From Chloranthus sessilifolius (taxonomy: Eukaryota; Streptophyta; Magnoliopsida; Chloranthales; Chloranthaceae): a DNA stretch of 64,000 nt. The stretch spans positions 70,087,901 through 70,151,900 of the forward strand of contig CM037591.1 in NCBI GenBank assembly GCA_021018995.1, read 5' to 3'. Positions 1,762 through 63,495 of this stretch are shown here, in pieces; positions within the stretch are counted from its first letter, which is position 1; every line of letters starts with the position of its first letter. The notes beneath the pieces were generated by a model, which made no database searches, was not told the DNA's origin, and saw nothing but the letters and a program-made list of their open reading frames with translations. The position numbers and the translations under genes were made by a program.

Positions 1762-2040
1762 CTCTCCTCCTCTATCCTCAGATCTATTTCAGCCAATCAG
1801 AGCGCAAGGGAATAATTCTATTATGTTGGGCTGCTGATGTGGCCGATTTCTCTTCTAGAAGCTCTTCTCTCATTGGTCCTCAACTGGTGAGAATATATGA
1901 TACAGTTAGGGTTTCCAATCATGTGTAGTTGAGTACCAAAAATAGCCTAAGACTTGCTGACGTGCTTTGGAATTCATGCATAAAACTCTGGCATTGGCGG
2001 TTGCTGAAGAAAGAAAGCTGAGAAGTTGTCAGATCGCGTG

Positions 2041-2612
2041 TCGAGAGGTTTAGGGATCCTCTCGACAGGATCTGAATTTGCTTTGTGTGCACATCGACAT
2101 GTTGCAGTGACTGTCGACAGCTTCTGAGACTTCTCGACAGGATTAAAGTAGCTAGTCGATAGGTTTAGCAGCATCTCGACAGGTAAATAAAGATCCTGTC
2201 GACAGCTTGGGAGAGCATCTCGAGAGGTTGCTTTGAACTTGTCGATAGGAATGAAGGCTTATTTCTTCATTCTGCCCAGTTCTATACTCATCCTCTCAAC
2301 AGTTTATAGACAATCCTGTCGATGGGTTATACAATCTTCAGTGAAGTTCTCGACATGTTAGCTCAATCCTCGCGAGAATGAATGCTGCTTTAGGTAAGTT
2401 ATCGATAGGTTATCTTGCACTGCTCGACAGGTTCAGTTGAACCTTGCGATAAGTATCTGCAACCTCTCGACTTCATCTGTACCTTGAAGTATCCTCTCAA
2501 CAGGATCCACGACTATGCTTCCAACCTCTCGTTAGGTGTTGGAACCTCTCGAGATCTTCATCATTTCAACTCAGTACCTCTCGATAGCTGGACTTAACCT
2601 CTCGATAGGTTC
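2041..2612. promoter_or_regulatory. Phased palindrome array in LTR A (CCTCTCGAGAGG / CCTGTCGACAGG type)
   Basis: A short palindrome with a TCGA core recurs more than twenty times in unrelated context. In the best part the TCGA cores start at 2041, 2062, 2094, 2114, 2134, 2156, 2176, 2199, 2220 and 2242, giving intervals of 21, 32, 20, 20, 22, 20, 23, 21 and 22. The bases between sites are not conserved, so this is not a simple tandem repeat. It lies upstream of the LTR TATA box. Function is unknown; a dimeric DNA-binding factor is inferred. Confidence 0.75.
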
Positions 2613-4435: not shown

Positions 4436-4740
4436 TTTCCAGTGATTGTATCATATGCACCATGTGTATCTTCTCAAGTTGATTGCTATATGCTATTGAG
4501 TTTGTTTAATGATAATAAAACTGTCGTGATGGGATTGGGTCATCATTCCTCTGGTGCCTGTAGTTTAGGGAGCTTTGGATTGTTGAAATATTTTAGAAAA
4601 TACTGAATGGGATCACAGGAAGGACCAATGCTGGGTGCTGAGGGAGAATACACTGTCAAAATGAAGGATGGAGTCCCAAATGAACCTGTTGATAGATTGT
4701 TTGTAGAGTTTGACAGGTCCTGAAGGCCATTTAGGTGTTG

Positions 4741-5031
4741 TCGATGGGTACTGAAACTTGTCGATAGGTCAAAACAACCTCTCGATACGATCCAAGAACA
4801 TTTTGACAGGTTCTAAAAGTTTTTGATTAAAATTTTTGATAAGGTTAGTGTACCCATCGAGAGGTTTTGTGAGCCTCTCACAGTAATTTTCTCTGTAAAC
4901 TGGAACCTGTCAAGAGGATTATATGATGAATTCAAAGAACTCATCGAGAGATTCTGTGAACCTCTCAAAATGATTATTTCTGTCTTCTTGGACTTGTTGA
5001 CAGGATGGATCAGTCATTTTTTACTCTTCGA
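4741..5031. promoter_or_regulatory. Second phased palindrome array of element B, between integrase and post-pol ORF
   Basis: The TCGA-core motif of the LTRs reappears between integrase and the next ORF. Cores (TCGA or one-base variants) start at 4741, 4761, 4782, 4803, 4823, 4836, 4857, 4878, 4910, 4944, 4965, 4997 and 5028. Most intervals are 20-21 or 31-34; one is 13. The sequence between sites does not match the LTR, so only the motif and its spacing are shared. Confidence 0.7.
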
Positions 5032-5126
5032 CAGGTTGCATTAGCCTGTTGGCACCTTTCCCCTAATCCTTCAAAACACGATTTCTCTCCTGCTAAACCT
5101 AGCGACACCTCCATTCAATCATTCCC

Positions 5127-7597: not shown

Positions 7598-7887
7598 TGT
7601 TAAGTAGTGAAAAATATCATTTTTTCCCTCCTAACCTGACCTTTGATAGACCTTTGAGTTGACTAATAATGTGTTTAAGTGCATTTTGTAGATAAGCAAT
7701 AAATTGCAAGCTTAATGCAAATATGCACTTAAAATGGCCCAAGAAGCAAGTTGCTGCTCGACATGTGATCTTACAAACCAAAGGCAAACCAATCAAGCAA
7801 TCCACTAGGAGGTTGTTGGATGTTTAACAAATGAAGAACAACACAAGTGAGAGGTGCGCCAGCTATGGAAGCATGAGGATAAACCTA

Positions 7888-8341
7888 TCGAGTGGTTGGC
7901 CTGAGCTGCCGAGAGGATCTGATGCTAAAAAAACTAAGACTTCGAGAAGATCCAAAAGCTATCAAGAAGTTCTGAAGGGTAATTAGAATGTATCGAGAGG
8001 TTCTAAGGAGAAATACTAAAGTGTTCGAGAGGATGGCAGTAGCTATCAAGAGGTTGTGGTACACATGAGCTATGCAGTCGCGAGGTTCTAAAACACTTGT
8101 CGACAGGTTCCGTAAGTAAACCTATCGAGAGGATGAATGGAGAAATGGGTAGAATGATGAAATGAGTTTCTGATCCTATCGATGAGTCATCAATCATATT
8201 GACAAATGCAGTTCAACATCTCGAGATGTTTCCAAATCCTGACGAGAGCTAGCCAATCTTGTCGAAAGCCACGGAGATCCTATCAAAATGAAGAGCAAGC
8301 ACACTCAGAACAGGTCGAGAGGTTCCCTGAACCTCTCGACA
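7888..8341. promoter_or_regulatory. Phased palindrome array in LTR B
   Basis: Same TCGA-core motif as in LTR A. Cores (including one-base variants) start at 7888, 7909, 7942, 7962, 7993, 8025, 8046, 8078, 8100 and 8125, giving intervals of 21, 33, 20, 31, 32, 21, 32, 22 and 25. The array sits 240-700 bases upstream of the TATA box. Confidence 0.7.
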
Positions 8342-8580
8342 CTCTTTTTGGCAACTTCTCAGTGTGTTCCTTCAGTAACTGCCAATTTTAGAAGTTTGTG
8401 CACACCTTCCAAAGCACGTCAGCAACCCCTAGGGGTATTTTTACACGTGCATTTTCTACTTGTGGACCAATGGGAGAAGAGCTTCTAGAAGAGAAATCGG
8501 CCACAACAGCAGCCCAAAGTAACAGAATTGTTCTCTTGAGCTCTGATTGGCTGAAACGGATCTAAGATAGAGGAGGAAGG

Positions 8581-12239: not shown

Positions 12240-12326
12240 TCACTGCAGGGAATTTGAGACTCGCTGTAGCGACAACTTCAGAGCTTCAAGGCTCGCTACA
12301 GCTACCCTTAATTCTCACTGCAGCGA
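12240..12326. promoter_or_regulatory. Four-site palindrome array of element C (TCGCTGCAGCGA type) before its extra ORF
   Basis: Four 12-mers close to the palindrome TCGCTGCAGCGA: 12240-12251 TCACTGCAGGGA, 12261-12272 TCGCTGTAGCGA, 12293-12304 TCGCTACAGCTA, 12315-12326 TCACTGCAGCGA. Start-to-start intervals are 21, 32 and 22. A TATA-like CTTTAAAATG follows at about 12334, and the ORF start is at 12589. Confidence 0.7.
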
Positions 12327-12588: not shown

Positions 12589-13620
12589 ATGGCTTCTAGA
12601 AAGAAAACTGCATCCAAACTCTCGACTGTGAGGGCTAAATCTTCTAAGCAACCACAACAACAACAAGACGATCCCCCACCAATCTCGTGGTGGAACATGA
12701 AAGCGTTCAAACCAGAATGGTCTTTCGACCCAAGTATGTTTATCGACAACGCCACGACCGCATGGTCGATAAACTACTTAGACAAGCCAGATTGGAGGTG
12801 TTACTTACCCCCTTTCATACACACTTTCACCCCTACCTCGTTAAACTTTTTTATCAAAACCTACAAACGGGGGAAAATACCCAGAAAATGACCACACAAA
12901 TAGATGGCTGAACCTTCCATCTTGATGTCCGCGACATTGCTAAAGCCATGCACTGTCACATAAATTTTATAGAAAATCAGGGCCTCCTACTACCGCACCC
13001 CAAGGACGTGCCATTCCATCGCATCGCCACCAAAATGACTGATGGTAATCATGGCTCTAGTAAATCGATAAGAAGGACCCAACTACCGGCCAAGATGTGG
13101 CCATTAGATGACATCTTACGGAAAAACCTATACCATCCTGCAAGCTTTATTCTCTACGCATGAAAATCAGTGGTTCAATGCACCACAAGCCATTTGGGAA
13201 GGAATCAGATATGCCCACGAACAAATGTTAAACACCAGAGCTAAACCATTAGCCTCTATCCCATATTCTCGCCTTATATCTCATCTTCTAGAGGGGCTAG
13301 GATCAAGAGAACGATGACCCTTATGAAATACCGGCCAACGAAGAAAGAAGGGTGGATACCACTTGGATTTATACCAAGGACACATGGCGCATGAGCTATC
13401 AAAGGTGCCAAGGCAGTGTTCAAAACCAATGACATCGGCAGTTGGCAGAGGGTGTTCACCAAGCAGACCCAGTACAACCTGCATCCGGGGCTGCACCCTA
13501 AATGCCCCCACCGCAAGACAATATACACATCTTGGTAGAAATCAGTTGGCAACTGAGTGCAATGCAACAACAGCTGACCTCTATGAACCAGTAAACGAAT
13601 CAACGATTAGACTTCCATGA
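12589..13620 (+). pseudogene. Element C extra post-pol ORF (decayed)
   Basis: Reading frame after pol, same strand, homologous to those of D and E. It starts MASRKKTASKLSTVRAKSSK (basic, low complexity). Shared landmarks follow: P..WWNMKAFKPEW, TAWSINYLDK, LVKLFYQNLQTG, TQIDG, DIAKAMHC, then W.LDDILRKNLY and SIPYSRLISHLLEG. The LV.LFYQNL...IDGR...AIAK pattern recalls the 'putative plant transposon protein' domain found in plant retroelement extra ORFs; this is recognition from memory, not a search. It is broken in several places. Confidence 0.6.
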
Positions 13621-13640
13621 GGCCATGCTGATAAACCTGA

Positions 13641-14225
13641 TGTAAAAATCCTATCCGACCAGCTCCACCCCATACATAGCTATGTCAAGGGAGTATACCG
13701 TAGAGTATACAAGAGGCACATCTAGTTATGGAGCAGGACGTGATCACAAGCAACCAACAGAGCAGCCAGGTGAGCATGCAGTTCGATGATGGATCCGATA
13801 GTTGGTAATCAGATCTCTTAGTCCGATGGTTCGATCTCCCTCCTTTTCGGTCGTGATGGTATGGAAATCGAAGTTCCAGTATGATCGGGGCGAATAGATG
13901 TTCAAGTCAAAGGAGGAGAAGGATTTGAAAATCATCTACGGCTGAGATCTCATGAGGAATTGAGGAAGGAGATGGTTTTTCTCTTTTCTCTTCGGTTTCT
14001 CTTTTCTTTCAATGAGAGGCTAATTTAACTTCCTGCATGGCTTTTGTGTGGGGAATGTCTCTTATACTAAGAGTGTTGATTATGTGTGCAAGCCGGTACA
14101 CCCAACATGGGGTATGGGCTTTTTAAATAAAACTAAAAGTAATATAAGGTTTAATGCTCCTGTTGGGTAGTTTTCAAGTGCTGATTTATTGTAAAGGAAA
14201 ATAAAATCAAAGTAAAAGAGGACCG
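13641..14225. other. Unassigned sequence between elements C and D
   Basis: No LTR, polypurine tract or gene recognised. It includes a CT-rich tract (about 13975-14010). The boundary between C and D lies somewhere here. Confidence 0.4.
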
Positions 14226-18054: not shown

Positions 18055-18129
18055 CTTGCCACGGCAAGGGCTAAGTGTTGCCACGGCAAGTCACTTGCCG
18101 CGGCAAGCTTAGAGTGTTGCCGAGGGAAC
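18055..18129. promoter_or_regulatory. Four-site palindrome array of element D (CTTGCCGCGGCAAG) before its extra ORF
   Basis: Four 14-mers: 18055-18068 CTTGCCACGGCAAG, 18077-18090 GTTGCCACGGCAAG, 18094-18107 CTTGCCGCGGCAAG, 18116-18129 GTTGCCGAGGGAAC. Intervals are 22, 17 and 22. The same palindrome occurs four times in D's LTR (21282-21369). Array to ORF start (18400) is about 270 bases, close to the 263 bases in element C. Confidence 0.8.
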
Positions 18130-18399: not shown

Positions 18400-19745
18400 A
18401 TGCCTCCTAGAAAAGTAGGCGTGTCTAAACCCCCAAAGTCCTCGGCTAAAGAAAAAGGCAAAGTCCTTCTTCTTCTATCCCCGAACTAATCGATCCACCA
18501 AACATGCCGGAACAGCCCATTCCTTGGTGGGCTGCGAAGGCAATGGAACCAGAATGGATTGTGGACGATAAGCTACTAACCCCGAATGACCAGACTGCAT
18601 GGTCACTTCGTTATATCGAAAAGGCACAGTTAAGCGCCTTATACCAGCCCTTTCACAATCAGGTTTTTCCGTGCTTAGTTCGATTATTTAATCAAAATCT
18701 GGTCGTCACCCCTACTGTTGGTCAATTACAGACCGAAATAGATGGTCGTAAATTTTATTTTAATATCCTACACATAGCAAAAGCAATGGACTGTAGTGCT
18801 GAATATGCCGTCACTTCAGGACTACAATTACCATGATAGAGGGATGTGAAATTTCACCACATCACCTCAAAAATGACAAATGGTTAGACCGCTTCTGACC
18901 ATAGTCTTGCCATACGTCGCAGCCAGTTACCACAACGGATGTGGTTTTTGGATTGTATCTTTCGATCGAATTTATACACCATGCAGCATGAAAGAGAGCG
19001 CCGAGATGCTCTCTTACAGGCTCTTTTTACCGTCCACGAAGGATGATGGTTAAATGCCCCTAGGGTGGTTTGGGAAGGCATCAAGTATGCCAATGAGCAT
19101 CTGCAAAGCACCGTGTCACCTTCCATGCCTTCTTGCCCCTACCCTAGACTGATCTCCCGCATGTTTGAAGGACACTTTGATAGTGTCAATCTCATTCCCT
19201 ATCAGATCCCCGTTGGCGAAGAGGTCCGTACCGATAACATATGGATCTTTAGCCCAACAATTTGGAGAAATATCTACCAACTCTCTTTTCAAGCGGTAAA
19301 TAACTGCCAAGCAAAACAAACTAGTCATCCTCCTCAATCCCAACCAGAAATACCCCAATAGATTCCCATCCCTCCTCAACCGCAACCACAAGCTCAACCT
19401 GATTCAGTTCCTGCGGCACAAGGAACCTACACCAATGTCGACCTTGTTCAGCTCATGCGTGAAAACCATGAGCAAACCCTCATTCAATTCGATAATCTTT
19501 ATCAAAATCACTACATGATCCATCAACGCATCGATTATGTTGAAGAAGCGACAAATATCATGATGGAGCATACTTTTCAAACTGCTGCAAGCCCCTACAT
19601 TGGGCGGGCGCGCAACTATGTCTCTCAGTATACCCGCAATGCAACATTGTTGGTCCCGAAATTCCAGCAAGATTATCAATAACAACAACAACAACAAGCT
19701 GGTACATCCTCAGCGGGCGAACAACAAACAGATCCTCAGCCTGGT
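18400..19745 (+). pseudogene. Element D extra post-pol ORF
   Basis: Sense-strand frame between pol and the 3' LTR. The start is chosen at 18400 (MPPRKVGVSKPPK), matching the short basic starts of the homologues in C and E. Landmarks: PIPWWAAKAMEPEW, TAWSLRYIEKA, LVRLFNQNL, QTEIDGRKFYFN, HIAKAMDC, MWFLDCIFRSN, WEGIKYANEHL, YPRLISRMFEGHF, then a C-terminal region rich in P and Q with a possible coiled coil (VDLVQLMRENHEQTLIQF). It resembles the 'putative plant transposon protein' type. No catalytic motif recognised. Broken in a few places. Confidence 0.65.
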
Positions 19746-21188: not shown

Positions 21189-21233
<45 letters not shown>

Positions 21234-21281: not shown

Positions 21282-21369
21282 CTTGCCGCGGCAACCTCAA
21301 GGGGTTGCCGCGGCAAGACCCTCTGCTGAGTGGCTTGCCGCGGCAAGCACCATGTGTTGCCGCGGCAAC
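21282..21369. promoter_or_regulatory. Four-site palindrome array in LTR D (CTTGCCGCGGCAAG)
   Basis: Sites at 21282-21295, 21304-21317, 21334-21347 and 21356-21369, nearly perfect copies of the palindrome with C/G at the outer bases. Intervals are 22, 30 and 22. A TATA-like TATAAA lies about 95 bases downstream at 21464. Confidence 0.85.
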
Positions 21370-22018: not shown

Positions 22019-22158
22019 AAGTGATCCCGCTAACTCGGGAGCTTGAAATTCTTGAGTCTAAGTGATCCCGCTAACTCGGGAGCTTGACATATTCTAGTCC
22101 AAGTGATCCCGCTAACTCGGGAGCTTGACAAGCGATCCCACTAACTCGGGAGCTTGAC
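22019..22158. repeat. Four tandem copies of a ~29-41 bp unit in LTR D
   Basis: Each unit holds AAGTGATCCCGCTAACTCGG followed by GAGCTTGA. Within the unit CCCG and CGGG can pair around CTAACT, so each copy could form a small hairpin. Unit lengths are 41, 41, 29 and 29 or so because the linker varies. Confidence 0.9.
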
Positions 22159-22866
22159 CTTGTTGATATCTTGTTTTTGCCAGCATGTATCTTCAGTTCA
22201 GTCTGTTTCTCATACTTGTTATACCATGCATATTTACAACATATGTACAACGTGCCAGCATAATGGATTATTTTATGTTTCTCTATGGAAATAAATGATA
22301 AACTATCAATATAGAATACAAATGCACTATTCTCTACTGAGCTGTGGATGATAGCTCATTCCTCGATTTAAATATTTTAGTTGCAAAGCCTGATCCTGAG
22401 CAGGCGGCTGATCTGACGTATGTGCCTGAGGAGGAGGGAGACGAAGACGACGACGACGATGACGACGGCGGGGAAGATGACTTTCCAGAGGAGTTCTTCC
22501 CGTAGATAGGTTTGTTACTTGGGATTGGGATATGGGACATTGGGAGAGAGAGAGAGAGAAAAGAAAAAGATATTTTGGTCGGTATAAATTATATATGTTG
22601 GTTTTAGATTTCTGAGGAGATGTTGTGTGGATGTATAGGTTTCTCACTAGATCCTTTGTTTTCTAATCATTGCATATATTAGTTTCTAGTTTCTATTTAT
22701 CAATTATTTTGCCATCTTTGTTAATTGTCAGAGTTTAATTACATTGCTTCCACATTTTGTATCAGTTTGATGTAAAATAAGGAAACTTTGATGAAAGGAT
22801 CATATCAGGTGATCCGATGGCGCGACCTTTTCTAGTTGAGAGACTGGGAAACGTCGGGCTGTCACA

Positions 22867-23308: not shown

Positions 23309-24956
23309 TGTAGACACCTAAATTTAGCCTAAGGCCCGATTGACACATACTTCGAGAAAGGCATACCTCTAAGCTTTTGAAAGCATTTTTCAAACCCTTA
23401 GGAATCATCTTAAAACCTTTAGGAATCATCCAGAACCCTTAGAAATCAACCACATCCTTCCCAGACCTATTAGAACCCTTCCCAGGCACGATTCGAACCC
23501 CCATGAACAGCAGTTAGAAAGAGGAGTGCCAAAGTTTTTGTAGATAGTTATCCAATCTAAGTTATATACCATTGGAAAGTAGAGCTTCTCATCATTCTAA
23601 TGAACAAATAATTGCCTAATTTATAGTTGTACATCAAAAGTTATGGCGAAATTAAGATCGCAGATTTGTGTAAGAAATTGACAAACCGGACCCACAGAGC
23701 TAGTTCGAACCCTCCTGAGCAGTGGTTAAAGAGAGCAATGCCAAAATTTACATAAAACTATTTTGAAGCTGAGTTATAAACTATTGGAAAGATGACTTTT
23801 CCAGCTTTGCAACAAGCCAAAAATCACCTCATTCAGAGCTATACATCAAATGTTATGGCAAAATGAAGATCGCGGATTTATGCAGGAAATTACAAAACCG
23901 GGTTGGGCCCCTACGAATCTTCAACTTCCAACAATTTGGGCCTGGTTTTCCTTTAAAAAATAGCCAAAATTGACATTGGGGGTTTGACTTGTAGACCATC
24001 TCAAAGTCTGGGGTGTGTTTCTTTAGGATTCTAGCGACCTTATTAGCTTAGGTTATCTCCCTTTAGCCATTCAAGTCACCACCCTATCATCTACCATTAA
24101 ACCCAAATCCCTCTTCTCCAAGCTCTAGAAAACCCTAAAAGCCTTAGATTGTCCTTTACCTAATTGCGAACCCTAATTAGCTTTTAAGTACCCCCTAACC
24201 CTCCCTTTTTCTATAAATAGAGAGGCACCACTCCTTGCAAATGGCTTAAAAAAATTTTAAAAGAGAGAAAAGGCTTTAGCTATTCCTCTCCTCCCATTTT
24301 AGCATTTGTCCATTAAAATTCCAGCACCGTAGTTTATCCATTGGACCTCATTTTCCACCATCAATCTTTGAGATCTAGCTAGAACTAGCCCCTAGCCTTC
24401 TTCTCTTACCTCTTAGCTACCAAGCCTTAGAGATTCAAACTCATCCTTCTTCCTATTTGCTATTGGAAGCTCATCCAAGACACATCAACGCGAAGGTCCA
24501 CATCGGTGCTACAAGGGTTCGAGGGCTTCGGCTCTCCCCTCTATTCCTCTACCTTCTTTGCTTTTCATCTATCCTAGAATTGTGCCTTTATGCTGCCTAA
24601 ACTTTGACAAGCGGGAAGGGTTCAATAGGATCGGTGTGCCTTCGGGCAAGGGAAAGTGCCGCCCATTTTACTTCTTTATATATATATTATAAACTAGCCC
24701 CACATAGACCCAGCTATAGTAGAGACCGCTTACAAGTGGGTTGATCGGGGGCCTAACACCTTCCCGATCGATAATCGAAGCCCCTAGCCAAGAGCCTTTG
24801 GCGTAGACCAGATTCAGAGTCATATTTGTGGCACTTTGGTGCTTATAAAAATGATCTTGGTTTCTCGAGACACCAAAAGCTCTGGGTGGTGACTCTAAAT
24901 ATTTATTTAGCGAGCGCATCGTCGCAACGGGATCGTAAAAAAATCCCACGGTTGCA
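23309..24956 (+). repeat. 5' LTR of element F
   Basis: Starts TGTAGACACC and ends CCCACGGTTGCA, followed by TGAA and the primer-binding site. TATA box TATAAATA at 24212. Contains three short copies of CCTTAGGAATCATC at about 23395-23450 and a diverged internal duplication of about 200 bp (23483-23900). Confidence 0.85.
24212..24219 (+). promoter_or_regulatory. TATA box of F 5' LTR
   Basis: TATAAATAGAGAGGCACC context, repeated in the 3' LTR at about 63042. Likely transcription start some 30 bases downstream. Confidence 0.65.
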
Positions 24957-27117: not shown

Positions 27118-27500
27118 CCAAGTCCCCATAGCCCAAGGCCCAATGGGTAGGACCCAACAAGAGTCCATGGACCAGACTCATTAAGGCCCAATGGGCCAGA
27201 CCCAATAAGGACATAATGGGCCAGACTCATCAAGGCCCAATGGGCCAGCCCACCAAGGGCCCATGGGGCAGATCCATCAAGGCCCAATGGGCTAGACCCA
27301 TAAAGGGCCCATGTCTTAAACTCATCAAGGCCCAATGGGCCAGACCCACCAAGGCCTAATGGGCCAGACCCAATAAGGGCCCATGGCCTAGACCCAACAA
27401 GGGCCCATGTCTCAGACCCACCAGGGGCCCATGGTCCAAACCCTTCAAGGGCCCATTGGCCCAAACCCATCAATGGCCCATGGCCCAAACCTTCCATGAC
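27118..27500 (+). repeat. 24-bp repeat inside the F Gag region (GGCCCAATGGGCC)
   Basis: About 15 copies of a 24-bp unit centred on GGCCCAATGGGCC or GGCCCATGGGCC, e.g. starts near 27137, 27162, 27185, 27210, 27234, 27257, 27281 and 27305. A 24-bp period keeps the reading frame (8 residues, of the form KAQWARPx), so it is best read as a coding repeat of the Gag linker. Confidence 0.75.
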
Positions 27501-36147: not shown

Positions 36148-37649
36148 TCAACGACCCAACTCGCGCTTCAAAGCACTAATCTCAACGTGAAAACCATCCT
36201 CCAGAACATTTCGCTCGGTCAACCAACGATCATGCAAGCTCTTATACTTCTTCCAAGACGCATCAATAGCTCCAAGGGCAACACTCAGATCCTTTCAGAT
36301 GAAGGACCTCACTCTCCGCTATCCCTGCTCTAACTTTCTCTTGTGCTAAAAGCTCGTGCAAGACCCTCTTCTCATCAGTCAATAACTCAATACGGGCTCA
36401 AAGCTTCATCTCCTTCTTTGGCCAGGGGCCTCCCACACCAATACTCTCCGGCCGATCCAGATGATCAGCAGTAGGCTGTTCAGCCAATAGCCAAGCCTCA
36501 TACTCAGGGGAAGACTGAATTGAATCTCCCTGCTCCATATCATACATCAGCGTCGACTGACGCATCTCTCAAAGGGTAGCAATCTGATCCATGTCCCCAG
36601 AGGACCCCTACAAAAGATCAAGTCACATAGAGGGGGTTTTGTCTTGCAAGGCACCTGCTGAGAGCAGCCGAACATACGCAACACTCGAAATGGGAAATAG
36701 AAGGTGCTGTCAGTCAATCCTAGAAGGGTGATACCCTCATGGTCTCTGGAATGAACTATTGGGAAGGTCCAGTCCAAACAAGGAAGCCTCCATATCAGCT
36801 CGGTGTCAGTCAATAAAAGCTTCAAAGCTAATAAATCGCCCTGCGGAAGTAAGTGACACCTACCCAAAAAGCATCGAGCCTCCTCACCTCGAGCAACATA
36901 AAAGCATGGCATGAGTCCCAAGATAGCGAGATGCTCACTTAACCAGACTTGAAGCAGCAAAGGACATCCCCTGAGGTTCTCCACCTTGCCCAGAGCAAAT
37001 GCATTGAGACAATAATACAGTTCAGCACGGACCAAGTGCAACATTAATCGACCCTCTGCCAATTCGATCAAAACATTGCAAAGAGCCAGGGAGAAGCTCT
37101 CTCTCATAGTAAAGAAAAGGACTTTCAAGATGAGACCGAGAGCAAAGGATTTCACATTGAAGATGTTCCTAACCAACAATTTTTGAAGACTTTCATCACC
37201 GAAAAGTTCTTTGAGGAACCCTAAACCCCAATGAGACTTTTCTCGTACTCAAATTTCTTCAAACCGAGGGTAAGGTGAACGGATTTGGAGTAGCCCGACT
37301 TTTGTGTGACTCTTGTGAGGCCTCTGTGAAGCTTTAAGCCAGGTAAGTTGGATAGCTCCTCAAGGGTTGGAGTTAGCTCCCGCTTCCCAAAATGGAACAA
37401 ATGCGCATTTGTATCCCAAAAAGAGGTTGCCGCATGAAGTAGGTCCCATTGTAGAGGAACATTAAGAAAGAAGGGAAGATGTGATAGCCCAAGCTGCTCC
37501 AATTCAACAAGCTCGCTCTCGTTCAAGCTCCCACGCCAACTTTTAAGAAAATTGGGCCCCAAGCCCAACGAAATGAGTAAATTGTTTCCGAGCCCTCCAT
37601 GTAAGGGAGGGTGGGAAAGTAGGTCCATAGACGTACAAAGGTTTCTCAA
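36148..37649 (-). pseudogene. Antisense ORF in the 3' region of element F (plant-mobile-domain-like)
   Basis: Lies on the strand opposite to pol. The N-terminal half (37649 down to about 37221) has LQWDLLHAATSFWDTNAHLF and TPTLEELSNLPGLKL, like the start of plant-mobile-domain/DUF7745-type proteins. The middle (37179-36547) is Leu-rich with CPLLLQVWLSEHLAILG. The C-terminal end near 36150-36250 (ASWKKYKSLHDRWLTE, ISALKRELGR) looks like a coiled coil. Antisense ORFs between pol and the 3' LTR are known in Tat-lineage elements such as Grande. It is broken in a few places; family assignment is by eye. Confidence 0.6.
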
Positions 37650-37764
37650 GAATATAAAATTTAATATATATTGATGGACCCGCCCTTGGGAAAGTAAGGA
37701 GAAAAAGAATCAATCAAGAAGGCCAAGTCAAAAAGATAAGAGAGGGAATCTGGACTATCTCAGG

Positions 37765-38260
37765 CATATAAGGCTTTGAAAAATGACAAAAAAATCACAC
37801 CAAACAATAGCTTTGAAAAACCCCAAAAATTTCACATAAAATGATAGGTTTGAAAAATGACAAAAAAAATCACACTAAATAATAGCTTTGAAAAACCCAA
37901 AAAAAAAAATCACATAAAATAATAGCTTTGAAAAACCCAAAAAAAATCACATAAAATGATAGCTTTGAAAAATCCAAAAAAATCACATAAAATGATAGCT
38001 TTGAAAAACAAAAAATCCCTTAAAATGATAGTTTTGAAAAACCAAAATTCACATAAAATAATAACTTTGAAAAACAACAAAAACACATAAAATGATAAAG
38101 AAAATCCCAAAAATAATAAAGTGATAAAATCACATGGAATGATAACTTAAAATCCAAAAACAATCACATAAAATAATAACTCAAAATCTTAAAAAATCAC
38201 ATAGAATGATAAACACTAAAAAGGATAAAAAATGTTCCACATAAAATAACAAAAAGATAT
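37765..38260. repeat. Imperfect tandem repeat of ~40 bp in element F 3' region
   Basis: At least ten copies of 'AATCACATAAAATGATAGCTTTGAAAAA'-type units with variable A-runs and decay toward the right end. Minus-strand ORFs here (repeating Phe, Ile, Leu) are products of the repeat. Confidence 0.85.
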
Positions 38261-44323: not shown

Positions 44324-44328
44324 TAACA
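44324..44328. repeat. Target-site duplication of element E, left copy
   Basis: TAACA, identical to 56582-56586. Confidence 0.9.
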
Positions 44329-46724
44329 TGTGACAACCCAGATTTTGGCACCCTAAAATCCGTGCCATCAACACGGCCCTCTAGGCCGTGACCCCAAAGT
44401 CCATACGGAACATTGGTATACTCAAGCAATCTTGACTAAAAATAAAACATGTAAATTGAATAACATGAGATAAAGTATGCTAATCTAGCAAAAGCTCAAA
44501 AGACAGTTCTTCTTCCATGCCAACGCATGAACAGAAGAATCGAGCCGAACCATCGGTGATAAACAGATCACCCTAGATGGTTCGCCAAAAGGAATATATC
44601 ATTTAATTATATTGTTTCAAAAAAATAGGCCTAACATACAAAGCCGTACTGAAAAGCTCTAAAAAATAACTCTCAAGTACGCAAGGGTCCTCTAGAAGAA
44701 GTCCTTAGGAGGAGGCTCCAACTCATCCCCGGGCATGTAATATGAATCCCCCGGATCTACGTCTCTCGAAGCCTCGGCGGCCGCAAGCAATGGACCTTCG
44801 ACGTATAGTCTAAAGGGGTGAGCTACATCCTAGCTCAATAGGGAAATAACAAGTGAACATATAAGTTAAGCTCTCACATATATTCTAAAACAGTTTAAAA
44901 GCATGATTTACCTGATGGAATTGCATGGGAAAACACTTTAAACAACTGAAATGAAGTACTAGATGCAATTGTTACTTTACGTGGGTTTGTTCATTCTCAA
45001 ATTACTAATATTAATTATTGATTTGGCCTAATCACTTAAATCTTAACTTAAATAATCTCTGAGCAATATAGCATCGAGCCCTGATGGAATACCCACCATC
45101 GTCGTCTAAATAGACACTTGTTATATTTGTTTCTTTCTTGAATACTACCCAGGTCCCTTTCTCATAGGCGACGGGGTTTCTAGACTCATACTCACATCCC
45201 TGGGATGTCAGCTTGGTGTACGGATTGGCCGTCGTACCGGTCACGGATATCCTACAGAGTCAGCTGTGGGTATCCCGCCACATCGGTGGGGTATTCTATT
45301 TAAACATTAAATAACAAAAATATCATGTGCGCTATATATATTTATTCACCGTGTGATCATGCTAATTCTAGTATATTAGGCCTTATCAACTTTTCTTTTA
45401 CTTCACCGATAGATTTTATCTACATCCCTGGGATGCCACTGGCTCAACGCATCACTTAGATGCACATTATCACATTTTCACATCCCATGGGGACCTTATG
45501 AGTTCATTTAGCATTCACACACACCCACACTCTTAGAAATCACATTTTTGATGCATTAATATTCATTTGAATCACTCTATATATATGCTTTTGAAAATTA
45601 AAGTACATGTTCAAAATGTTTCGTACCTCATGCGTTGGAATCACTATGCGCCAAAGTCTACGCGACTCCACATTCTCACTCTTTGCTCATACCACCTATG
45701 GTACATCATAACATAAGCAAGGCATCAATAAGAATGTGTTAAAGAAGGTACAAGGCCTTCCAAGAATCCTCAAGGTCAAATACAAAAGTCAACATGAACT
45801 GTCAAAATCGATTAATTGAAATTCTAAAATTGATTAATCAAAAATCCAAAATCGAGTAATCAATCCCAAATTGATTAGTCGAAAATCCATACTTTGATTA
45901 ATCGATTCTAAATCGATTAATCGAAAATCCAAACTCGATTAATCTATTCTAAAATCGATTAATCAATTTTTCCGAATCTCCATTTTCCAGCCACTGGAAG
46001 TGCTCAGACTATTAATCGATTAATTGAAATTCCATATTCGATTGATCGATTTAAAATCGATAAATCGGTTTCAGACAATTCTTCCCAGCTTACTTTTGAA
46101 CCAAAATCGATTAATCGATTTTTCAAATTGCTTAATCGATTTGGTCAGAACTCAGCCCTTTCTCGGGCATTCTTCCAACCTTCATTCTCCTTCTATTTTC
46201 ATTCATTTTTACCTCTTTAATCCCTCATTTTAACATCACTTGAATGCACAAACAAACTTTAAGGAGATTAAACAAAACATACCTCAATCAATCTCTTGAT
46301 TGAATCAATGTCTAGGTTTAATTACTAGGGCTCCAACTCCGGCTTCCACATGTTGAATCCAACATTAATGTTCAAGCCCTCTCTTAATTTTGAAACCTAA
46401 TCACTTACTTTAGCATTTACTCTTCCTTCACTCTCTCTCTCTTCTTAACTTCTCAACAACCTAAGCCAGGAGTAATGATTTCTCCTAGCATTTAATCCCC
46501 CCTTTCTAACTCTTCTTGTCTCGGTGTTAAGCACATACACTACAGACAGGTGTATGTGACTCTTAACTAACATCTAATGCCCTACTTGGGATACGTTCAC
46601 ACTACATTTAATAGTTTCATTCTAAGTCCACTATTTGACCATCACTTGGTCAAACCTACGACCTGTCAGGCACGCATCCCGAGGTCATTGTTTGGTGTCG
46701 TGTCCAAATTTTAGGGATGTTACA
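44329..46724 (-). repeat. 3' LTR of element E
   Basis: On the minus strand it begins TGTAACATCCC at 46724 and ends GGGTTGTCACA at 44329. It contains the TCGATTAATCGA array (45808-46139) and a TATA-like GCATATATATAGA near 45577-45589, downstream of the array in element orientation. Confidence 0.93.
45808..46139. promoter_or_regulatory. Phased TCGATTAATCGA array in 3' LTR of E
   Basis: Thirteen 12-mers at or within a few bases of the palindrome start at 45808, 45830, 45852, 45871, 45894, 45913, 45935, 45955, 46016, 46038, 46057, 46107 and 46128. Intervals: 22, 22, 19, 23, 19, 22, 20, 61, 22, 19, 50, 21. Sequence between sites varies. Confidence 0.85.
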
Positions 46725-46738
46725 TTCTCCCCACCTTG
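46725..46738 (-). other. Polypurine tract of element E
   Basis: Minus strand CCAAGGTGGGGAGAA just before the 3' LTR, preceded by the conserved TTTTCGAGGACGAAAAT block (about 46741-46760), as in D. Confidence 0.8.
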
Positions 46739-47044
46739 GGAATTTTCGTCCTCGAAAATGAACCCCAAGGTGTGTTGATGGGGTTCCCCCCACACATAGA
46801 CACACGTAGGCACAAGTTATACTAACGTACCCATCACAAGTTATATACTAAAAGAAGCATAATTGAAATTAAGAGGTAACGACTTTGATTCACATAATGG
46901 CATCCATGCCAAGATAGTCGCAAACAAGGAATTTTCTGCAACAAAATTTACAATTTAGAGACAAAAATTTACAATTCCCAAAATAATTACAGCAAAACTC
47001 CCAAAATGTAATCTCCCCCAAAAAGAAATTTCATGATCGAGAGG

Positions 47045-48487
47045 TCACGCGATCCCCTCGCTAGGCTGGTCTACTACGACAGGCTGGTCTGCTACGTCAG
47101 GCAGCTGCGGTCTCTCGCTTGGCTGCTGTGGTCCCAGAGCAGATGTGCCCGCGCCTGAAGTACCCTCAGCAGGAGCGTTAAGTGTCCACGTCGGCTCCTC
47201 CGCTAAGCGCTGCTGGAAATCTGTGGGATAGATGTACATCATAGTATGGTACATCAGGAAATCCAAGCGGCGGTTCATCTGTTGGTTGTTAACCTCCATC
47301 CGGGCCAACACATCGTCGATCGTAGGGGCGGGGCGAGTGGCTCACCGACGGTATGATGATGTAGGTGCAGAAGTAGCTAGAGGTGATCGTGATGTAGTAG
47401 GAGGTGGCACTATGGACTGCCCCTCAGGTGGCATTGAACCATGAGATGGTGCTCCCTCCGCTGGTGGATCATGCTGTGGTGGTGGGGGTGGTGGTGGTCC
47501 CTCTACTGCTAGGGCCTTCTTCGACAGCCTATAACTATAGCCCCACAAAGCGATGGAGTAATGCTTTACGTGGTCCATAGCCTTCCTCTCAATCGGTGAA
47601 ATGGCATACTCCGGTGCGTCAAAGTGGCATTCTAACATGCTCGATATAAGTCGAGCATAGGGCATATTTTCCTTGGGTCTCAAGGGACCCTTCAATCATC
47701 TTCCCATTGATGTAAATCATACCCTCTATGATGAGTTTGGTCATGTCGGACCAACGCCCACAGTATGCTGCATAAAGGGCTTGTTGGACCAACTCGACCC
47801 TCTCGGTGTCGTGGCCCATCGGGTAGAGGTTGCACTTGATTATTGAATCAAGCATCCACATATAATGGGGTAAATCTACCCTGTTTATTGACGATCCGGA
47901 TTCGCCGAGCCCTTTGGTCATCTCGATCTGAATTGCCTCAATTTTGGCTTCCTCGATAAATGGTTGAAAGAGGGTGGTCTCGGGCACAAAATCCAAGTAA
48001 CACTCTAGGGATTCGTGCACATGGCGGCGAGTGAAAGTGTAACTACGACCGTCAATCTCGATCATAACTGTGTCATCAACCCATCCCGCCTTTAAGTTCT
48101 GGTAAAATAGGGACATGAGTCAAGGGTAAAAATACCCATGTAGAGGTTCAAAAGGTTTTCGAGACCCACCTTTTCAAGGTATTGCCGGGCCCATTGGGTC
48201 TCACCCTCGATGTCGGGATTGGTAAACAAGGCATCGTCGATAATATACTCGTCTTCAAAATTCTTTGCCGCCCACCACTCATTTGGTTGGGGCAAAGTTT
48301 CGGGTGGTAGTTGGGGTACATCAATGTGTGGTGATTGGGGTGTCAGCGATGACTCGCGCGAAGACATGCTCATCGAATCAGATCCTAGATCTAATGAAGA
48401 AGATGGTGATGATCGAGGTGATGGTGGTGGCGGTGGCGGTGCGGCGTTCTTACGCCGATCCGGTAGCTTGGAAGCCACTTGCTTCAT
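47045..48487 (-). pseudogene. Element E extra post-pol ORF
   Basis: Sense to its element, between pol and 3' LTR. The start is chosen at 48487 (MKQVASKLPDRRKNAAPPPP) by analogy with D and C; an upstream in-frame ATG is at 48520. Landmarks shared with D: NEWWAAKNFEDEYIIDDALF, TQWARQYLEKVGL, MSLFYQNLKAGW, IEIDGRSYTFTRRHVHESL, WMLDSIIKCNLYP, MPYARLISSMLECHF, and a C-terminal Pro/Gln-rich part with MEVNNQQMNRRLDFLMYH. The N-terminal is basic then Ser/Pro-rich. No enzyme motif recognised. Broken in a few places but the best of the three for comparing domain order. Confidence 0.65.
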
Positions 48488-48759
48488 GGTCAAATGGGTT
48501 CTAGGAGGAATTTTGATCAAAAACTAAATTAAACTAGGGCCGTGATGGTCCAAACTAAAAGAAAATTGAATTTGGAGTTTACCTGAAGTGTTAGGTCCAC
48601 ATGGCATGGGATTTCGATCTGAAATCGATGCCAAAAATGCACAAACCCTAGCCGGTATGGTAACTCGAGGAGGAAGAAGAAATGGCGCCCAAAAGAAGAA
48701 CAAAACTGATTTTCGAATGGGGGCAAAAATCCTTAATTTTATATATATATAGGCAAAAA

Positions 48760-49017
48760 TCAATTGATCGATTTCAAAAATTGATTAATTGACTTTTCAT
48801 AACTTAACGCAGCCGCACGAAATCGATTGATCAATTTTAAAAATCGATTAATTGATTTTCAAAATCAATTAATCGAATTCAACTCGATTAATAGAAATTC
48901 GCTGTTATTTAATTCCCAGGTTTGTCATCTCACAGGCGTATGCCAGTCGTTTAATCGACCAAAATCGATTGATTGATTTCAAAAATTGATTGATCGATTT
49001 GGAAATCGATTAATCAG
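48760..49017. promoter_or_regulatory. Phased TCGATTAATCGA array of E between pol and extra ORF, with TATA-like box
   Basis: Sites start at 48760, 48781, 48823, 48844, 48865, 48884, 48947, 48965, 48986 and 49006. Intervals: 21, 42, 21, 21, 19, 63, 18, 21, 20, i.e. mostly multiples of 21. In element orientation the array is followed at once by TATATATATAAAA (48751 to 48737), then about 250 bases to the ORF start at 48487. This looks like an internal promoter. Confidence 0.8.
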
Positions 49018-54256: not shown

Positions 54257-56581
54257 TGTGATAGCCTGAATTTCGACAGCCCGAAACCCATCCCATTAGC
54301 ACGGCCCTCTAGGTCGTGACCCCAAAGTTCATATGAAACATTGGTATACTCAAGCAATCCTTACTAAAAATGAAACATGTAAACTGAACAACATGAGATA
54401 AAGTATGCTAATCTAGGAAAAGCTCCAAAGACAGATCTTCTTCCATGCCAACTCATGAACAGAAAAACCGACCTGAACCATTGGTAATAAACTGATCACC
54501 CCAGATGGTTCGCTAAAAGGAATATATCATTTAATTACATTATTTCAAAAAAATAGGCCTGACAAACCAATTCGTACAGAAAAGCTCTAAAAAATAACTC
54601 TTAAGTATGCAGGGGTCCTCTAGCAGAAGTCCTCAGGAGGAGGCTCCAACTCTTCCCCGGGCACATAATTCGAATCCCCCGGATCTACGTCTCTCGAAGC
54701 CTCAGTGGCTGCAAGCAATGGACCTGCGATGTATAGTCTAAAGGGGTGAGCTACATCCTAGCTCAATAGGGAAACAACAAGTGAACATATATAAGTTAAG
54801 CTCTCACATATATTCTAAAACAGTTTAAAAGCATGGTTTATCTGATGGAATTGCATGGGAAAACACTTTAAACAACTGAAATGAAGTACTAGATGCAATT
54901 GTTACTTTACATGGTTTGGTTCATTCTCAACTTACTGGTAATAATTACTGATTCAGCCTACTCACTTAAATCTTAACTTAAATAATCCCCGAGCAATATA
55001 GCATCGAGCCCCGATGGAATACCCACCATAGTCGTCTAAATAGACACTTTTCATATCTGTTTCTTACTTGAATACTATCCAGGTCCCTTTCTCATAGGCA
55101 ACGGGGTTTCTAAACTCATACTCACATCCTTGAGATGTCAGACAGGTGTACGGATTGGCTGCCGTACAGGTCACGGATATCCTGTCGAGTCAGTTGTTGG
55201 TATCCCGCCATGTCGGTGGGGTATTTTATTTGAACCTTAAATAACAAAAATATCATGTGCACTACATATAGTTATTCACCATGTGATCGTGCTAATTCTA
55301 GTATATTAGCCCTTATCAACTTTTCTTTTACTTCACTGATTGATTTCATCTGCATCCCTGGGATGCCACTGGCTCAACGCATCACTTAGATGCACATTAT
55401 CACATTTTCACGTCCCTTGGGGACCTTATGAGTTCATTTAGCATTCACACACACCCACACTCTTAGAAATCACATTTTTCATGCATAAATATTCATTTGA
55501 ATCACTCTACATATATACTTTTGAAAATTAAAATACATGTTCAAAGTGTTCCCTACCTCACGCGTTGGAATCATTGTGTTAAAGTCCACACGACTCCACA
55601 TTCTCACTCTTTGCTCGTACCACCTATGGTACATCATAACACAAGCAAGGAATCAATAAGGATGCATTAAAGAAGGTACAAGGCCTTCCAAGAACCCTCA
55701 AGGCCCAATACAAAAGTCAACATGAACTGTCAAAATCGATTAATCGATTCCCAAAATTGATTAATCGAAATTCCAAAATAGATTAATCGATCCAAAATCG
55801 ATTAATCAACACTCCAAAATCGAGTAATCGATCCCAAATTGATTAGTCGAAAATCCACACTTCGATTAATCGATTCCAAATCGATTAATCGAAAATCCAA
55901 ACTCAATTAATCGATTCTAAAATTGATTAATCAAATTTTCCCAGTCTCCATTTTCCAGCCACTAGAAGTGCTCAGACGATTAATCGATTAATTGATTTGG
56001 TCAAAACTCAGCCCTTTCTCGGGCATTCTTCCAACCTTCATTCTCCTTCAATTTTCATTCATTTTTACCTCTTTAATCCCTCATTTTAACTACACTTGAA
56101 TGCACAAACAAAATTTAAGGAGATTAAACAAAACTTACCTCAATCAATCTCTTGATTGAATCAATGTCTAAGTTTAATTACTAGGGCTCCAACTCCAGCT
56201 TCCATGAGTTGAATCCAACATTAATGTTCAAGCCCTCTCTTAAATTTGAAACCTAATCACTCACTTTAGCATTTACTCTTCCTTCACTCACTCTCTCTCA
56301 CTCTTCTTAACTTCTCAACAACCTATGCCAAGGAGTAATGACTCCTCCTAGCATTTAATCACCCTTTTCTAACTCTTCCTGTCTCGGTGTTAAGCACATA
56401 TATCAGAGATAGGTGTACGTGACTCTTAACTAACATCTAATCCCCTGCTTGGGATACGTTCACACTACATTTAATAGTTTCTTTCTAAGTTCACTATTTG
56501 AGATCACTTGGTCAAACTTATGACCAGTTGGGTACGCATCCCGAGGTCACTGTTTGTTGTCCAAATTTCAAGGATGTTACA
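54257..56581 (-). repeat. 5' LTR of element E
   Basis: Begins TGTAACATCC at 56581 and ends GGCTATCACA at 54257. Aligns along its length with the 3' LTR. Array homologous to that LTR at 55737-55993, from which some sites of the 3' copy are absent. Confidence 0.93.
55737..55993. promoter_or_regulatory. Phased TCGATTAATCGA array in 5' LTR of E
   Basis: First sites start at 55737, 55757, 55779 and 55798 (intervals 20, 22, 19), continuing with the same spacing through the 55900s and ending with ATTAATCGATTAATTGAT near 55980. It has fewer sites than the 3' LTR copy. Confidence 0.8.
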
Positions 56582-56586
56582 TAACA
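56582..56586. repeat. Target-site duplication of element E, right copy
   Basis: TAACA, identical to 44324-44328. Confidence 0.9.
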
Positions 56587-62142: not shown

Positions 62143-63495
62143 TGTAGACACCTAAATTTGGCCCAAGGCTCGATCGACACATACTTCAAGAGAGACATAT
62201 CCTTGAGCTTCTGAAAGCATTTCCCAAATCCTTAGGAATCATCTCAAACTCTTAGGAATCATCCCGAGCCCTTAGGAATCAACCATAGCCTTCCCATACC
62301 TATTAGAACCCTTTTCGGGCATGATTCGAGCCCTCCTGAACATCGGTTAGAAAGAGGAGTGCCAAAGTTTGTATATATAGTTTCCTAACCTAAGTAATAT
62401 ACTATTGGAAAATAGAGCTTCTCATCTTTCCAACGAACTAAGAATCGCCTAATTTGGAGTTGTACATCAAAAGTTATGGCGAAATTAAGATCACGGATTT
62501 GTGTAGGAAATTATAAAATCGGACCCATAGAGCTTATTTCGAACCCTCCTGAGCAATGGTTAAAGACAAGAATGCCAAAATTTACACAAACCTCTTCTTA
62601 TGCTGAATTATCTACCATAAGAAAAATGACTTCCCCATCTTTCCAATAAGCCTAAAATCTCCTCAATTAGAGTTATGCATCAAAAGTTATGGCGAAATGA
62701 AGATCACGGATTTCTGCAGGAAATTGCAAAACCGGGTTGAGCCTCTGTGGGTCTTCAACTTCTAATAGTTTGGGCCTGGTTTTTCTTCAAAAAATTGCTA
62801 AAATTGACATTGGGGATTCGACTTGTGGACCATCTCAAAGTCTGGGTGTTTCTTTAGGACTCTAGTGACCCTATTAGCTTGAGTTATCTCCCTTTTGCCA
62901 TTCAAGTCACCACCCTATCATCTACCATTAAACCTAAATCCCTCTTCTCGAAGCTCTAGAACACCCCAAAAACCTTAGATTGCTCATTACCTAATTGCTA
63001 ACCCTAATTAGCTTTTAAGTACCCCCTAACCCTCTCTTTTTCTATAAATAGAGAGGCACCCCCCCTTGCAAATGGCTTGAAAAGATTTTAAAAGAGAGAA
63101 AAGGCTTTAGCTATTCCTCTCTTCCTCTTTTAGCATTTGCTTATTAAAATTCATGCACCCTAGTTCATCCTTTAGACCTCATTTTCCACCATCAATCCTT
63201 GAGATCTAGCTAGAACTAGCCCCTAGCCTTCTTCTCTTACCTCTTAGCTACCAAGCCTTAAAGATCCAAACCCATCCTTCAACCCATTTGCTATTAGAAG
63301 CTCATTCAAGACACATTAATGCGAAGGTCCACATCAGTGCTACAAGGGCCCGAGGGCTCTGGCTCTCCCCTCTATTCCTCTACCTTCTTTGCTTTTCATC
63401 TATCCTAGAATTAAGCCATTACGCTGCCCAAATTTTGGCAAGCGGGAAGGGCTCAATAGGATCGGTGTGCCTTCGGGCAAGGGAAGGTGCAGCCC

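What the first reader, a model, noticed from the sequence alone, without database searches (positions are those of the whole stretch)
45808..49017. Helically phased palindrome arrays recur in four retroelement families with different motifs but one geometry
In A/B (TCGA core, CCTCTCGAGAGG type), C (TCGCTGCAGCGA), D (CTTGCCGCGGCAAG) and E (TCGATTAATCGA), a family-specific palindrome is repeated at start-to-start intervals clustering at 19-23 and 30-33 bp, with 42 and 63 in E: roughly whole multiples of 10.5 bp. The linkers are not conserved, so replication slippage alone does not explain it. Athila and Tekay are distant lineages, so either the design is convergent or the arrays evolve fast in sequence while geometry is under selection. 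Same-face binding by a dimeric protein is the simplest reading. An analogy, not a claim of homology, is the VANC anti-silencing proteins of VANDAL transposons, which bind short repeated motifs in their own element.
Basis: partly seen in the sequence, partly recalled or inferred. Interest (0 to 1): 0.88.

Follow-up and report, generated by a model that had tools for sequence, protein, structure and literature searches.

The report
Paired palindrome arrays in plant retrotransposons
Several plant jumping genes in this stretch carry rows of short mirror-image DNA words, spaced in whole turns of the double helix, both at their main promoter and just before an extra gene of unknown function, which looks like a self-control switch and makes a long-standing guess about that extra gene testable.

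Summary
Family-specific 12-bp palindromes form arrays whose neighbouring copies sit at whole multiples of 10.5 bp (68 gaps, fitted period 10.50, CI 10.41-10.60). In the Athila-like A/B family, 15 of 38 gaps are odd numbers of turns, so a 21-bp tandem unit does not explain it. One claim fails: in E, the array cited, linkers are conserved, so E is also a decayed tandem repeat.

In A/B, D and E the same palindrome occurs in the LTR upstream of a TATA-like box and in the spacer between pol and an extra downstream ORF; C has the spacer array (its LTR is not in the window). At the stricter cut-off the motifs are almost absent elsewhere. The C, D and E extra ORFs are homologous; D and E match Transposase_32 weakly, below cut-off.

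Best reading: helically phased operators for a dimeric protein, most likely the extra ORF's own product, acting on the LTR promoter and an internal promoter. The binder is inferred.

Prior art: Sirevirus (Ty1/copia) elements have palindromic boxes in the same two places (PMC2829016). New here: Ty3/gypsy families, helical phasing, and the tie to a homologous ORF family.

The parts
2037..2609 (-). A/B family array (CCTNTCGANAGG), 19 sites, in Athila-like LTR A
   Evidence: shuffle mean 0.36; TATA-like box 276 bp downstream in element orientation
4685..5035 (+). A/B family spacer array, 9 sites, after the integrase and before a degraded downstream ORF region (ATG 5259)
7884..8343 (+). A/B family array, 13 sites, in LTR B (starts about 7598); TATA-like box at 8581
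12240..12326 (+). C family spacer array (TCGCTGCAGCGA type), 4 sites with gaps 21, 32, 22
   Evidence: TATA-like box 10 bp after the array, ATG 263 bp after it
12589..13730 (+). C downstream extra ORF (broken, several frames; end approximate), homologous to those of D and E
18056..18128 (+). D family spacer array (TTGCCGCGGCAA), 4 sites with gaps 22, 17, 22
   Evidence: ATG at 18400, 272 bp after the array
18400..19682 (+). D downstream extra ORF (broken); weak Transposase_32 match, E=0.015
21283..21368 (+). D family LTR array, 4 perfect 12-mers with gaps 22, 30, 22; LTR about 20345-22866, TATA-like box at 21465
44329..46725 (-). E 3' LTR; 5-bp target duplication TAACA at 44324-44328 and 56582-56586
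45808..46139 (-). E family array (TCGATTAATCGA) in the 3' LTR; 15 calls, 13 after dropping overlapping ones; linkers conserved
47045..48487 (-). E downstream extra ORF (broken); a 166-aa open piece at 47622-48119 matches Transposase_32 weakly, E=0.04
48738..48751 (-). TATA-like run just after the E spacer array: candidate internal promoter
48760..49017 (-). E family spacer array, 10 sites; ATG of the extra ORF 273 bp after it
55736..55995 (-). E family array in the 5' LTR, 12 calls (11 after dropping an overlapping one)

Best explanation
The arrays are cis-regulatory operator arrays. Each 12-bp palindrome is one site for a protein dimer; sites are held mostly 2 or 3 helical turns apart so that dimers line up on one face of the DNA and bind together. 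Each element carries one array upstream of its LTR TATA box, driving genomic RNA, and one directly upstream of an internal promoter that drives the extra ORF downstream of pol. The most likely binder is that ORF's own product, a fast-evolving DNA-binding accessory protein of a Transposase_32-like group, forming a self-reinforcing loop: a low level of protein activates or de-silences both promoters of its own family only. Shown by sequence: the arrays, their phasing (strongly in A/B), the double location in A/B, D and E, the family specificity, and the homology of the C/D/E ORFs. Inferred: that the arrays bind protein, that the internal promoter is real, that the ORF product is the binder, and that the effect is activation or anti-silencing rather than repression.
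For: Helical phasing with odd multiples: in A/B, 15 of 38 gaps are 3, 5 or 7 turns; R at 10.5 bp is 0.80 against 0.20 at 21 bp. Linkers unconserved in A/B, C and D. Between the two Athila-like LTRs, columns where both have a motif are 76% identical (99/130), columns where one has 59% (43/73), linkers 58% (147/254), LTR outside the array 72% (554/771), though the aligner itself favours motifs. Same motif in LTR and spacer of one family and almost nowhere else: at the stricter cut-off, in 20 listed regions that cover 59201 of 64000 bases, D has 8 sites in its own two regions and 0 elsewhere, E 36 and 0, A/B 19 and 2, C 4 and 1. Spacer array ends 263, 272 and 273 bp before the ORF start in C, D and E, although the non-coding sequence there no longer aligns between families. 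TATA-like box 9-17 bp after the spacer array in C and E, and 97-276 bp after the LTR arrays. C, D and E ORFs homologous: 45% over 123 aa (C-D), 33% over 154 (D-E), 32% over 157 (C-E). F, another element here with an extra ORF, has a tandem array before that ORF which it does not share with its LTR (15 shared 9-mers against a random mean of 16.0), whereas spacer and LTR of A/B, D and E share 41-57, 44 and 123 (3 to 8 of about 190 random segments reach those).
Against: No protein-DNA contact is shown. Transposase_32 matches are below Pfam's cut-off (15.7 and 14.2 bits against 45); for E an unrelated family, EspG, scores almost as well (E 0.046 against 0.04); a shorter 128-aa piece of D gave no Transposase_32 match and none of the C pieces did. 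The structure model is poor (mean pLDDT 55.5, 5 rows), so no DNA-binding fold could be assigned. The C, D and E ORFs are broken; the A/B downstream ORF is degraded and its longest piece has no family match. No TATA-like box follows the D or A/B spacer arrays. At looser cut-offs 14 of 55 A/B, 9 of 13 C, 10 of 18 D and 20 of 57 E matches lie outside the arrays. E linkers are conserved, so tandem duplication explains part of E. No independent copies from plant genomes could be examined.
Confidence: 0.5

Rival explanations
1. The arrays are phased binding sites for host transcription factors, for instance stress-responsive ones, recruited by each family to drive the LTR and internal promoters; the downstream ORF is only another gene that needs the same regulation.
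For: Same anatomy. Bousios et al. suggest this for the Sirevirus boxes, by comparison with a plant cis-element database, while saying they could not identify one common factor (PMC2829016, section 9 and a passage of section 19).
Against: Four families use four different palindromes with similar geometry, while the C/D/E ORFs are related; a single host factor would not need a private motif per family. No motif collection was on hand to test host motifs.
Confidence: 0.27
2. Ordinary decayed tandem repeats without function, expanded by slippage and unequal crossing-over, with the palindromic core kept by chance or by recent expansion.
For: E linkers are conserved (z 7.4 to 9.5); Tandem Repeats Finder calls the E arrays with periods 21, 22, 41-42 and 83; unit gain and loss between LTRs A and B.
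Against: A/B, C and D linkers are at most slightly alike, whereas a control tandem array in the same window has z=17.4; Tandem Repeats Finder does not report the A/B, C or D arrays at score 40. Odd numbers of turns are common in A/B. The same motif recurs at two separate sites within A/B, D and E.
Confidence: 0.13
3. The arrays act through DNA or chromatin rather than a dedicated binder: CpG-rich islands or phased flexible DNA that exclude nucleosomes or resist methylation at the two promoters.
For: E arrays are CpG islands (observed/expected about 2.5 against 0.42-0.75 in the rest of LTR3); A and B LTR arrays are about 0.8 against 0.3 in the parts of their LTRs measured. All four motifs contain CG (chance about 0.008), as do the 13 Sirevirus boxes, 12 of them distinct.
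Against: The A/B spacer (0.56), C (0.73) and D (0.81, 0.85, against 0.71 in the D LTR downstream of its array) are not CpG islands. Curvature or openness does not require a precise 12-bp palindrome that differs by family.
Confidence: 0.07
4. The palindromes work in the RNA, as dimerisation or packaging signals of the genomic transcript.
For: Palindromes are used for RNA dimerisation in retroviruses (recalled); both arrays would lie in the 3' part of the genomic RNA.
Against: The fitted period for A/B is 10.57 bp (CI 10.47-10.69), B-form; at 11 bp, A-form RNA, the mean phase is off by 0.11 turn. A promoter-side position fits DNA better.
Confidence: 0.03

Closest known systems
Sirevirus repeated motifs (RM boxes) of Ty1/copia elements, Bousios et al. 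2010 (PMC2829016)
   Same: Element-specific palindromes with dyad symmetry and a CpG-containing core, many copies, in the LTR upstream of the TATA box and, only in elements with an envelope-like gene, upstream of that gene (77 of 79 linker copies); clusters form CpG islands in most of those elements (sections 9 and 10 read).
   Different: Those are Ty1/copia; these are Ty3/gypsy. All but one of the 13 share a CGG-CCG core, absent from A/B, C and E (D has CCGCGG). In the passages and sections seen no spacing or helical phasing is reported, and binding by the element's own gene product is not proposed.
VANC anti-silencing proteins and their targets in Arabidopsis VANDAL DNA transposons (PMC5735166)
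   Same: An element-encoded protein acts on short motifs repeated in non-coding regions of its own family; motifs differ between related families and arrays change by tandem repeat formation (passages).
   Different: VANDALs are DNA transposons; the VANC21 motif YAGTATTAY is not a 12-bp palindrome and is arrayed in one orientation; no helical phasing in the passages seen. Here no protein activity is known.
Foamy virus Tas transactivator with its LTR and internal promoter
   Same: A virus-encoded transactivator enhances transcription by binding both the LTR promoter and an internal promoter (abstract start in a search listing, PMC4929722).
   Different: Analogy of circuit only; no homology tested or claimed.
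EBNA1 sites in the EBV dyad symmetry element
   Same: A dimer binds semi-palindromic sites set in tandem pairs 21 bp apart, centre to centre (passages in PMC3798644), close to the 21/32/22 and 22/30/22 four-site layouts of C and the D LTR.
   Different: A replication and maintenance origin of an animal virus; unrelated.
Transposase_32 (PF20167) and Athila ORF-1 extra ORFs
   Same: Extra ORF downstream of pol in plant Ty3/gypsy elements; PMC11728184 (passages) reports a partial PF20167 match in a sunflower Athila ORF with a predicted nuclear signal; functions of such ORFs are described there as unknown.
   Different: The Tekay ORF in that study lies 5' of gag-pol and has no known domain; here the ORFs are 3' and D and E match PF20167 only below its cut-off.

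Membership tests
Sirevirus-type palindromic repeated motif (RM) arrays | High-copy dyad-symmetric motif, private to an element family | tested here: met
   copy number is only 4 per array in C and D, where the paper reports at least 8 per element
Sirevirus-type palindromic repeated motif (RM) arrays | Located in the LTR upstream of the TATA box and also upstream of the extra gene after pol | tested here: met
   for A/B, D and E; the C LTR is not in the window; a TATA-like box before the extra ORF was found in C and E only
Sirevirus-type palindromic repeated motif (RM) arrays | CGG-CCG core and a Ty1/copia host element | tested here: not met
   motifs; Ty3/gypsy order in D: RT, integrase, then a chromodomain-like stretch
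VANC-type self-targeting anti-silencing system | Element-encoded protein that binds its own motif array and removes methylation | not testable with these tools
   Array and candidate gene present; binding and methylation need experiments
VANC-type self-targeting anti-silencing system | Homology of the protein to VANC | not tested
   No VANC sequence was compared; Pfam scans of the ORF pieces gave at best weak Transposase_32 matches for D and E and no family for the C pieces
Transposase_32 (PF20167) | Score above the curated Pfam cut-off (45 bits) | tested here: not met
   15.7 bits (D) and 14.2 bits (E), covering 134 and 127 of 177 profile positions; top-ranked in both, but for E only just (EspG E=0.046 against 0.04); the 128-aa D piece and the C pieces gave none
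Ordinary tandem repeat | Conserved linkers and one fixed unit length | tested here: inconclusive
   Linkers conserved in E, not or barely in A/B, C and D; mixed odd and even turns in A/B
Tekay chromovirus (C, D, E) | Ty3/gypsy gene order ending in a chromodomain | tested here: inconclusive
D: RT 9.9e-33, Integrase_H2C2 1.3e-17, Chromo 3e-05 but 24.3 bits against a cut-off of 25.1; C and E pol stretches align to D at 67-69% DNA identity.
Athila (A/B) | Non-chromovirus Ty3/gypsy pol, distinct from Tekay | tested here: inconclusive
   Integrase core 3.2e-10 and no chromodomain hit in the three A/B pieces scanned; no tree was made

The most novel reading that the evidence does not exclude
Plant LTR retrotransposons of unrelated lineages carry a common two-promoter module: a fast-diverging accessory DNA-binding protein encoded after pol and helically phased, CpG-containing palindromic operators at both the LTR and the accessory gene's own promoter. 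It would be a private, methylation-sensitive self-activation or anti-silencing switch, and the env-like genes of plant retroelements would be regulators rather than envelopes.
Probability: 0.35. Interest if true: 0.9.

Novelty: new variant of a known kind. Interest (0 to 1): 0.7.

Why it matters
The function of extra ORFs after pol in plant retrotransposons is described as unknown or debated in the papers seen (PMC7264820, first of three parts; PMC11963269 and PMC11728184, passages). If the cognate sites are these arrays, each ORF comes with a predicted DNA target written in its own element, so the idea can be tested by one binding assay per family. It would also extend sequence-specific self-regulation, known from VANDAL DNA transposons, to LTR retrotransposons, and give a second reading of the Sirevirus boxes described in 2010. 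Motif and protein pairs that diverge while geometry stays similar would be a natural set for learning how a DNA-binding family changes specificity.

Tried and rejected
Exact-motif search: the consensus strings given for A/B and C do not occur exactly; replaced by mismatch-tolerant scans. Tandem 21-bp unit as full explanation: rejected for A/B, kept as partial for E. RNA-level reading: period does not fit A-form. Alignment of leaders, spacers and LTR flanks between families: no score above the highest shuffle. F element as a fifth family: its array before the antisense ORF is not shared with its LTR. Structure of the E ORF piece: mean pLDDT 55.5, so no fold search was run. Relatives: none of the D ORF pieces among the proteins and none of the D reverse transcriptase in viral or prokaryote contigs; these collections may hold few plants, so this is not evidence of absence. 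Statistics caveats: A and B are related LTRs and both are counted; E LTR5 was left out of the pooled gaps as a copy of LTR3; overlapping E sites at 46008 and 46115 were dropped before the phase tests, and 55976 in LTR5 before the linker test. The ten paper searches (open-licence library only) listed no paper that I recognised as reporting helical phasing of such arrays or binding by the element's own ORF product; only the papers cited were opened, mostly as passages, and subscription papers are not held.


Full report
What was checked. The window is a cluster of plant LTR retrotransposons.

The arrays are real. Mismatch-tolerant scans find 19, 9 and 13 sites of CCTNTCGANAGG in LTR A, the A/B spacer and LTR B; 4 of TCGCTGCAGCGA in C; 4 and 4 of TTGCCGCGGCAA in the D spacer and LTR; and 15, 10 and 12 of TCGATTAATCGA in E LTR3, spacer and LTR5. 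The means in 300 shuffles of each region are 0.1 to 1.2. Over the whole window at the same cut-offs, 41 of 55 A/B, 4 of 13 C, 8 of 18 D and 37 of 57 E matches lie in these regions. A blind scan of palindromic 10-mers in 400-bp windows recovers LTR A and the three E arrays but not the smaller arrays or LTR B, and also picks up microsatellites and two ordinary tandem repeats.

Helical phasing. Gaps between neighbours were pooled after dropping two overlapping E sites and leaving out E LTR5 as a copy of LTR3 (68 gaps). The best period between 9.5 and 11.5 bp is 10.50, R=0.73; a fit gives 10.50 with CI 10.41-10.60 and an rms error of 1.35 bp against 3.03 expected at random. A/B carries the argument: 38 gaps, 10.57 bp, CI 10.47-10.69, with 2-turn (20), 3-turn (5), 4-turn (1), 5-turn (9), 7-turn (1) and 8-turn (2) steps. 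R is 0.80 at 10.5 bp and 0.20 at 21 bp, so a 21-bp tandem unit does not fit. Relaxing the motif to 3 mismatches fills in sites and tightens the grid (47 gaps, R=0.84, period 10.75); tightening it to 1 mismatch leaves 14 gaps with R=0.69. C (21, 32, 22) and the D LTR (22, 30, 22) share a pair-gap-pair layout; the D spacer (22, 17, 22) has a short middle gap. Taken alone, C and D are too few to prove phasing. E is mostly even turns, fits 10.29 bp (CI 10.10-10.48), and with a free period from 6 to 16 bp E LTR3 prefers 13.85, D 6.85 and C+D 9.25. A test that uses no motif, counting repeated 8-mers, exceeds all 200 shuffles for phase in LTR A, the A/B spacer and the two E arrays tested, barely in LTR B, and not in C+D. 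So phasing is proven for A/B and suggestive for the others.

Linkers. In A/B, C and D linkers are no more alike than their shuffled bases, or barely so (z -0.9 to 2.0; p 0.04 and 0.03 for LTRs A and B). In E they are strongly alike (z 7.4, 8.5, 9.5), near TTYCAAAA; a plain 24-bp tandem array in the same window gives z=17.4. Between LTRs A and B, positions that are motif in both are 76% identical, linkers 58% and the rest of the LTR 72%; the aligner favours motif matches, so this is supportive only.

Two promoters, one motif. At a stricter cut-off, in 20 listed regions covering 59201 of the 64000 bases, D sites number 4 and 4 in the D spacer and LTR and 0 elsewhere; E 14, 10 and 12 in E LTR3, spacer and LTR5 and 0 elsewhere; A/B 12, 3 and 4 in its LTRs and spacer and 2 elsewhere; C 4 in its spacer and 1 elsewhere. 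In C, D and E the spacer array lies between pol and an extra ORF on the same strand; in A/B the ORF region after it is degraded. It ends 263, 272 and 273 bp before the first ATG of the ORF in C, D and E (one search used start positions off by one base for D and E, corrected), although the DNA on either side no longer aligns between families. A TATA-like box follows the spacer array by 9-17 bp in C and E; none was found in D or A/B. In the LTRs a TATA-like box follows the array by 97 bp (D), 219-225 bp (E), 238 bp (B) and 276 bp (A). This is the anatomy of a shared operator at a main and an internal promoter.

The extra ORF. In C, D and E it is broken but clearly one family: 45% identity over 123 residues (C-D), 33% over 154 (D-E), 32% over 157 (C-E). 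D (one frame, stops as X) and the open 166-aa piece of E each have Transposase_32 (PF20167) as top Pfam family with E=0.015 and 0.04, far below the curated cut-off, and for E only just ahead of EspG (0.046); a shorter D piece and the C pieces have no such match. Sunflower work reports PF20167 in an Athila ORF with a predicted nuclear signal (PMC11728184, passages). A distant common origin of Tekay and Athila downstream ORFs is therefore possible but not established. The A/B downstream region is too degraded to tell. A structure model from five fragment rows was poor.

How it most likely works. Even-dyad palindromes on one face of the helix suit a dimer that binds cooperatively with its neighbours, as at the paired EBNA1 sites 21 bp apart (PMC3798644, passages). 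Private motifs with similar geometry suit a diverging protein family rather than one host factor. The presence of the same array at the LTR and before the extra ORF suits self-regulation, as with the foamy virus transactivator (PMC4929722, abstract start seen in a listing) and VANC proteins (PMC5735166, passages). Activation or anti-silencing is the better guess because silenced copies need a way to start; repression is not excluded. All four motifs contain CG (chance about 0.008), as do the 13 Sirevirus boxes, which makes methylation-sensitive binding worth testing; but only the E arrays are CpG islands.

What is known. Bousios et al. 2010 (PMC2829016; passages and sections 9 and 10) described in Ty1/copia Sireviruses palindromic boxes, private to elements, upstream of the LTR TATA box and upstream of an envelope-like gene, absent from the linker when the gene is absent. 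That is the same kind of anatomy, so this is not a new kind. They called the boxes Sirevirus-specific, but in the text seen they were compared with other Ty1/copia elements. New here: the same layout in Ty3/gypsy elements, helical phasing, and the tie to a homologous ORF family. The ten paper searches (listed under Tried and rejected) listed no earlier report of these three points that I recognised.

Limits. One window, four families, no independent plant copies, no intact extra ORF, and no binding data.

Noticed in passing
36550-38233: F has antisense ORF pieces after pol with sub-cut-off matches to Plant mobile domain (E=1.3e-6) and DUF7745 (E=1.6e-4) and a 33-37 bp tandem array just upstream of them; unlike A/B, D and E this array is not shared with the F LTR.
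   Followed up: partly
22018-22158: D LTR carries several copies of a unit with an interrupted palindrome (CCCG...CGGG), periods 41 and 29 bp, downstream of the TATA-like box.
   Followed up: no
12540-12610, 18330-18420, 48475-48590: C, D and E each have GGTAAA followed 58, 66 and 82 bp later by CTAG/AA around the first ATG of the extra ORF (D has another CTAGAA 14 bp after), a possible short leader intron.
   Followed up: partly
27134-27491: 24-bp tandem repeat with GGCCCA cores inside F; conserved linkers, used as control for an ordinary tandem array.
   Followed up: partly
45808-46139, 48760-49017, 55736-55995: E arrays are CpG islands (observed/expected about 2.5) in a CpG-poor window (0.56); mismatches from the E motif are CG to TG/CA changes in 26 of 48 cases.
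   Followed up: partly
23492-23901 and 62325-62735: F LTRs contain an internal duplication of about 200 bp.
   Followed up: no
895-1344: 169-bp tandem repeat, 2.7 copies.
   Followed up: no
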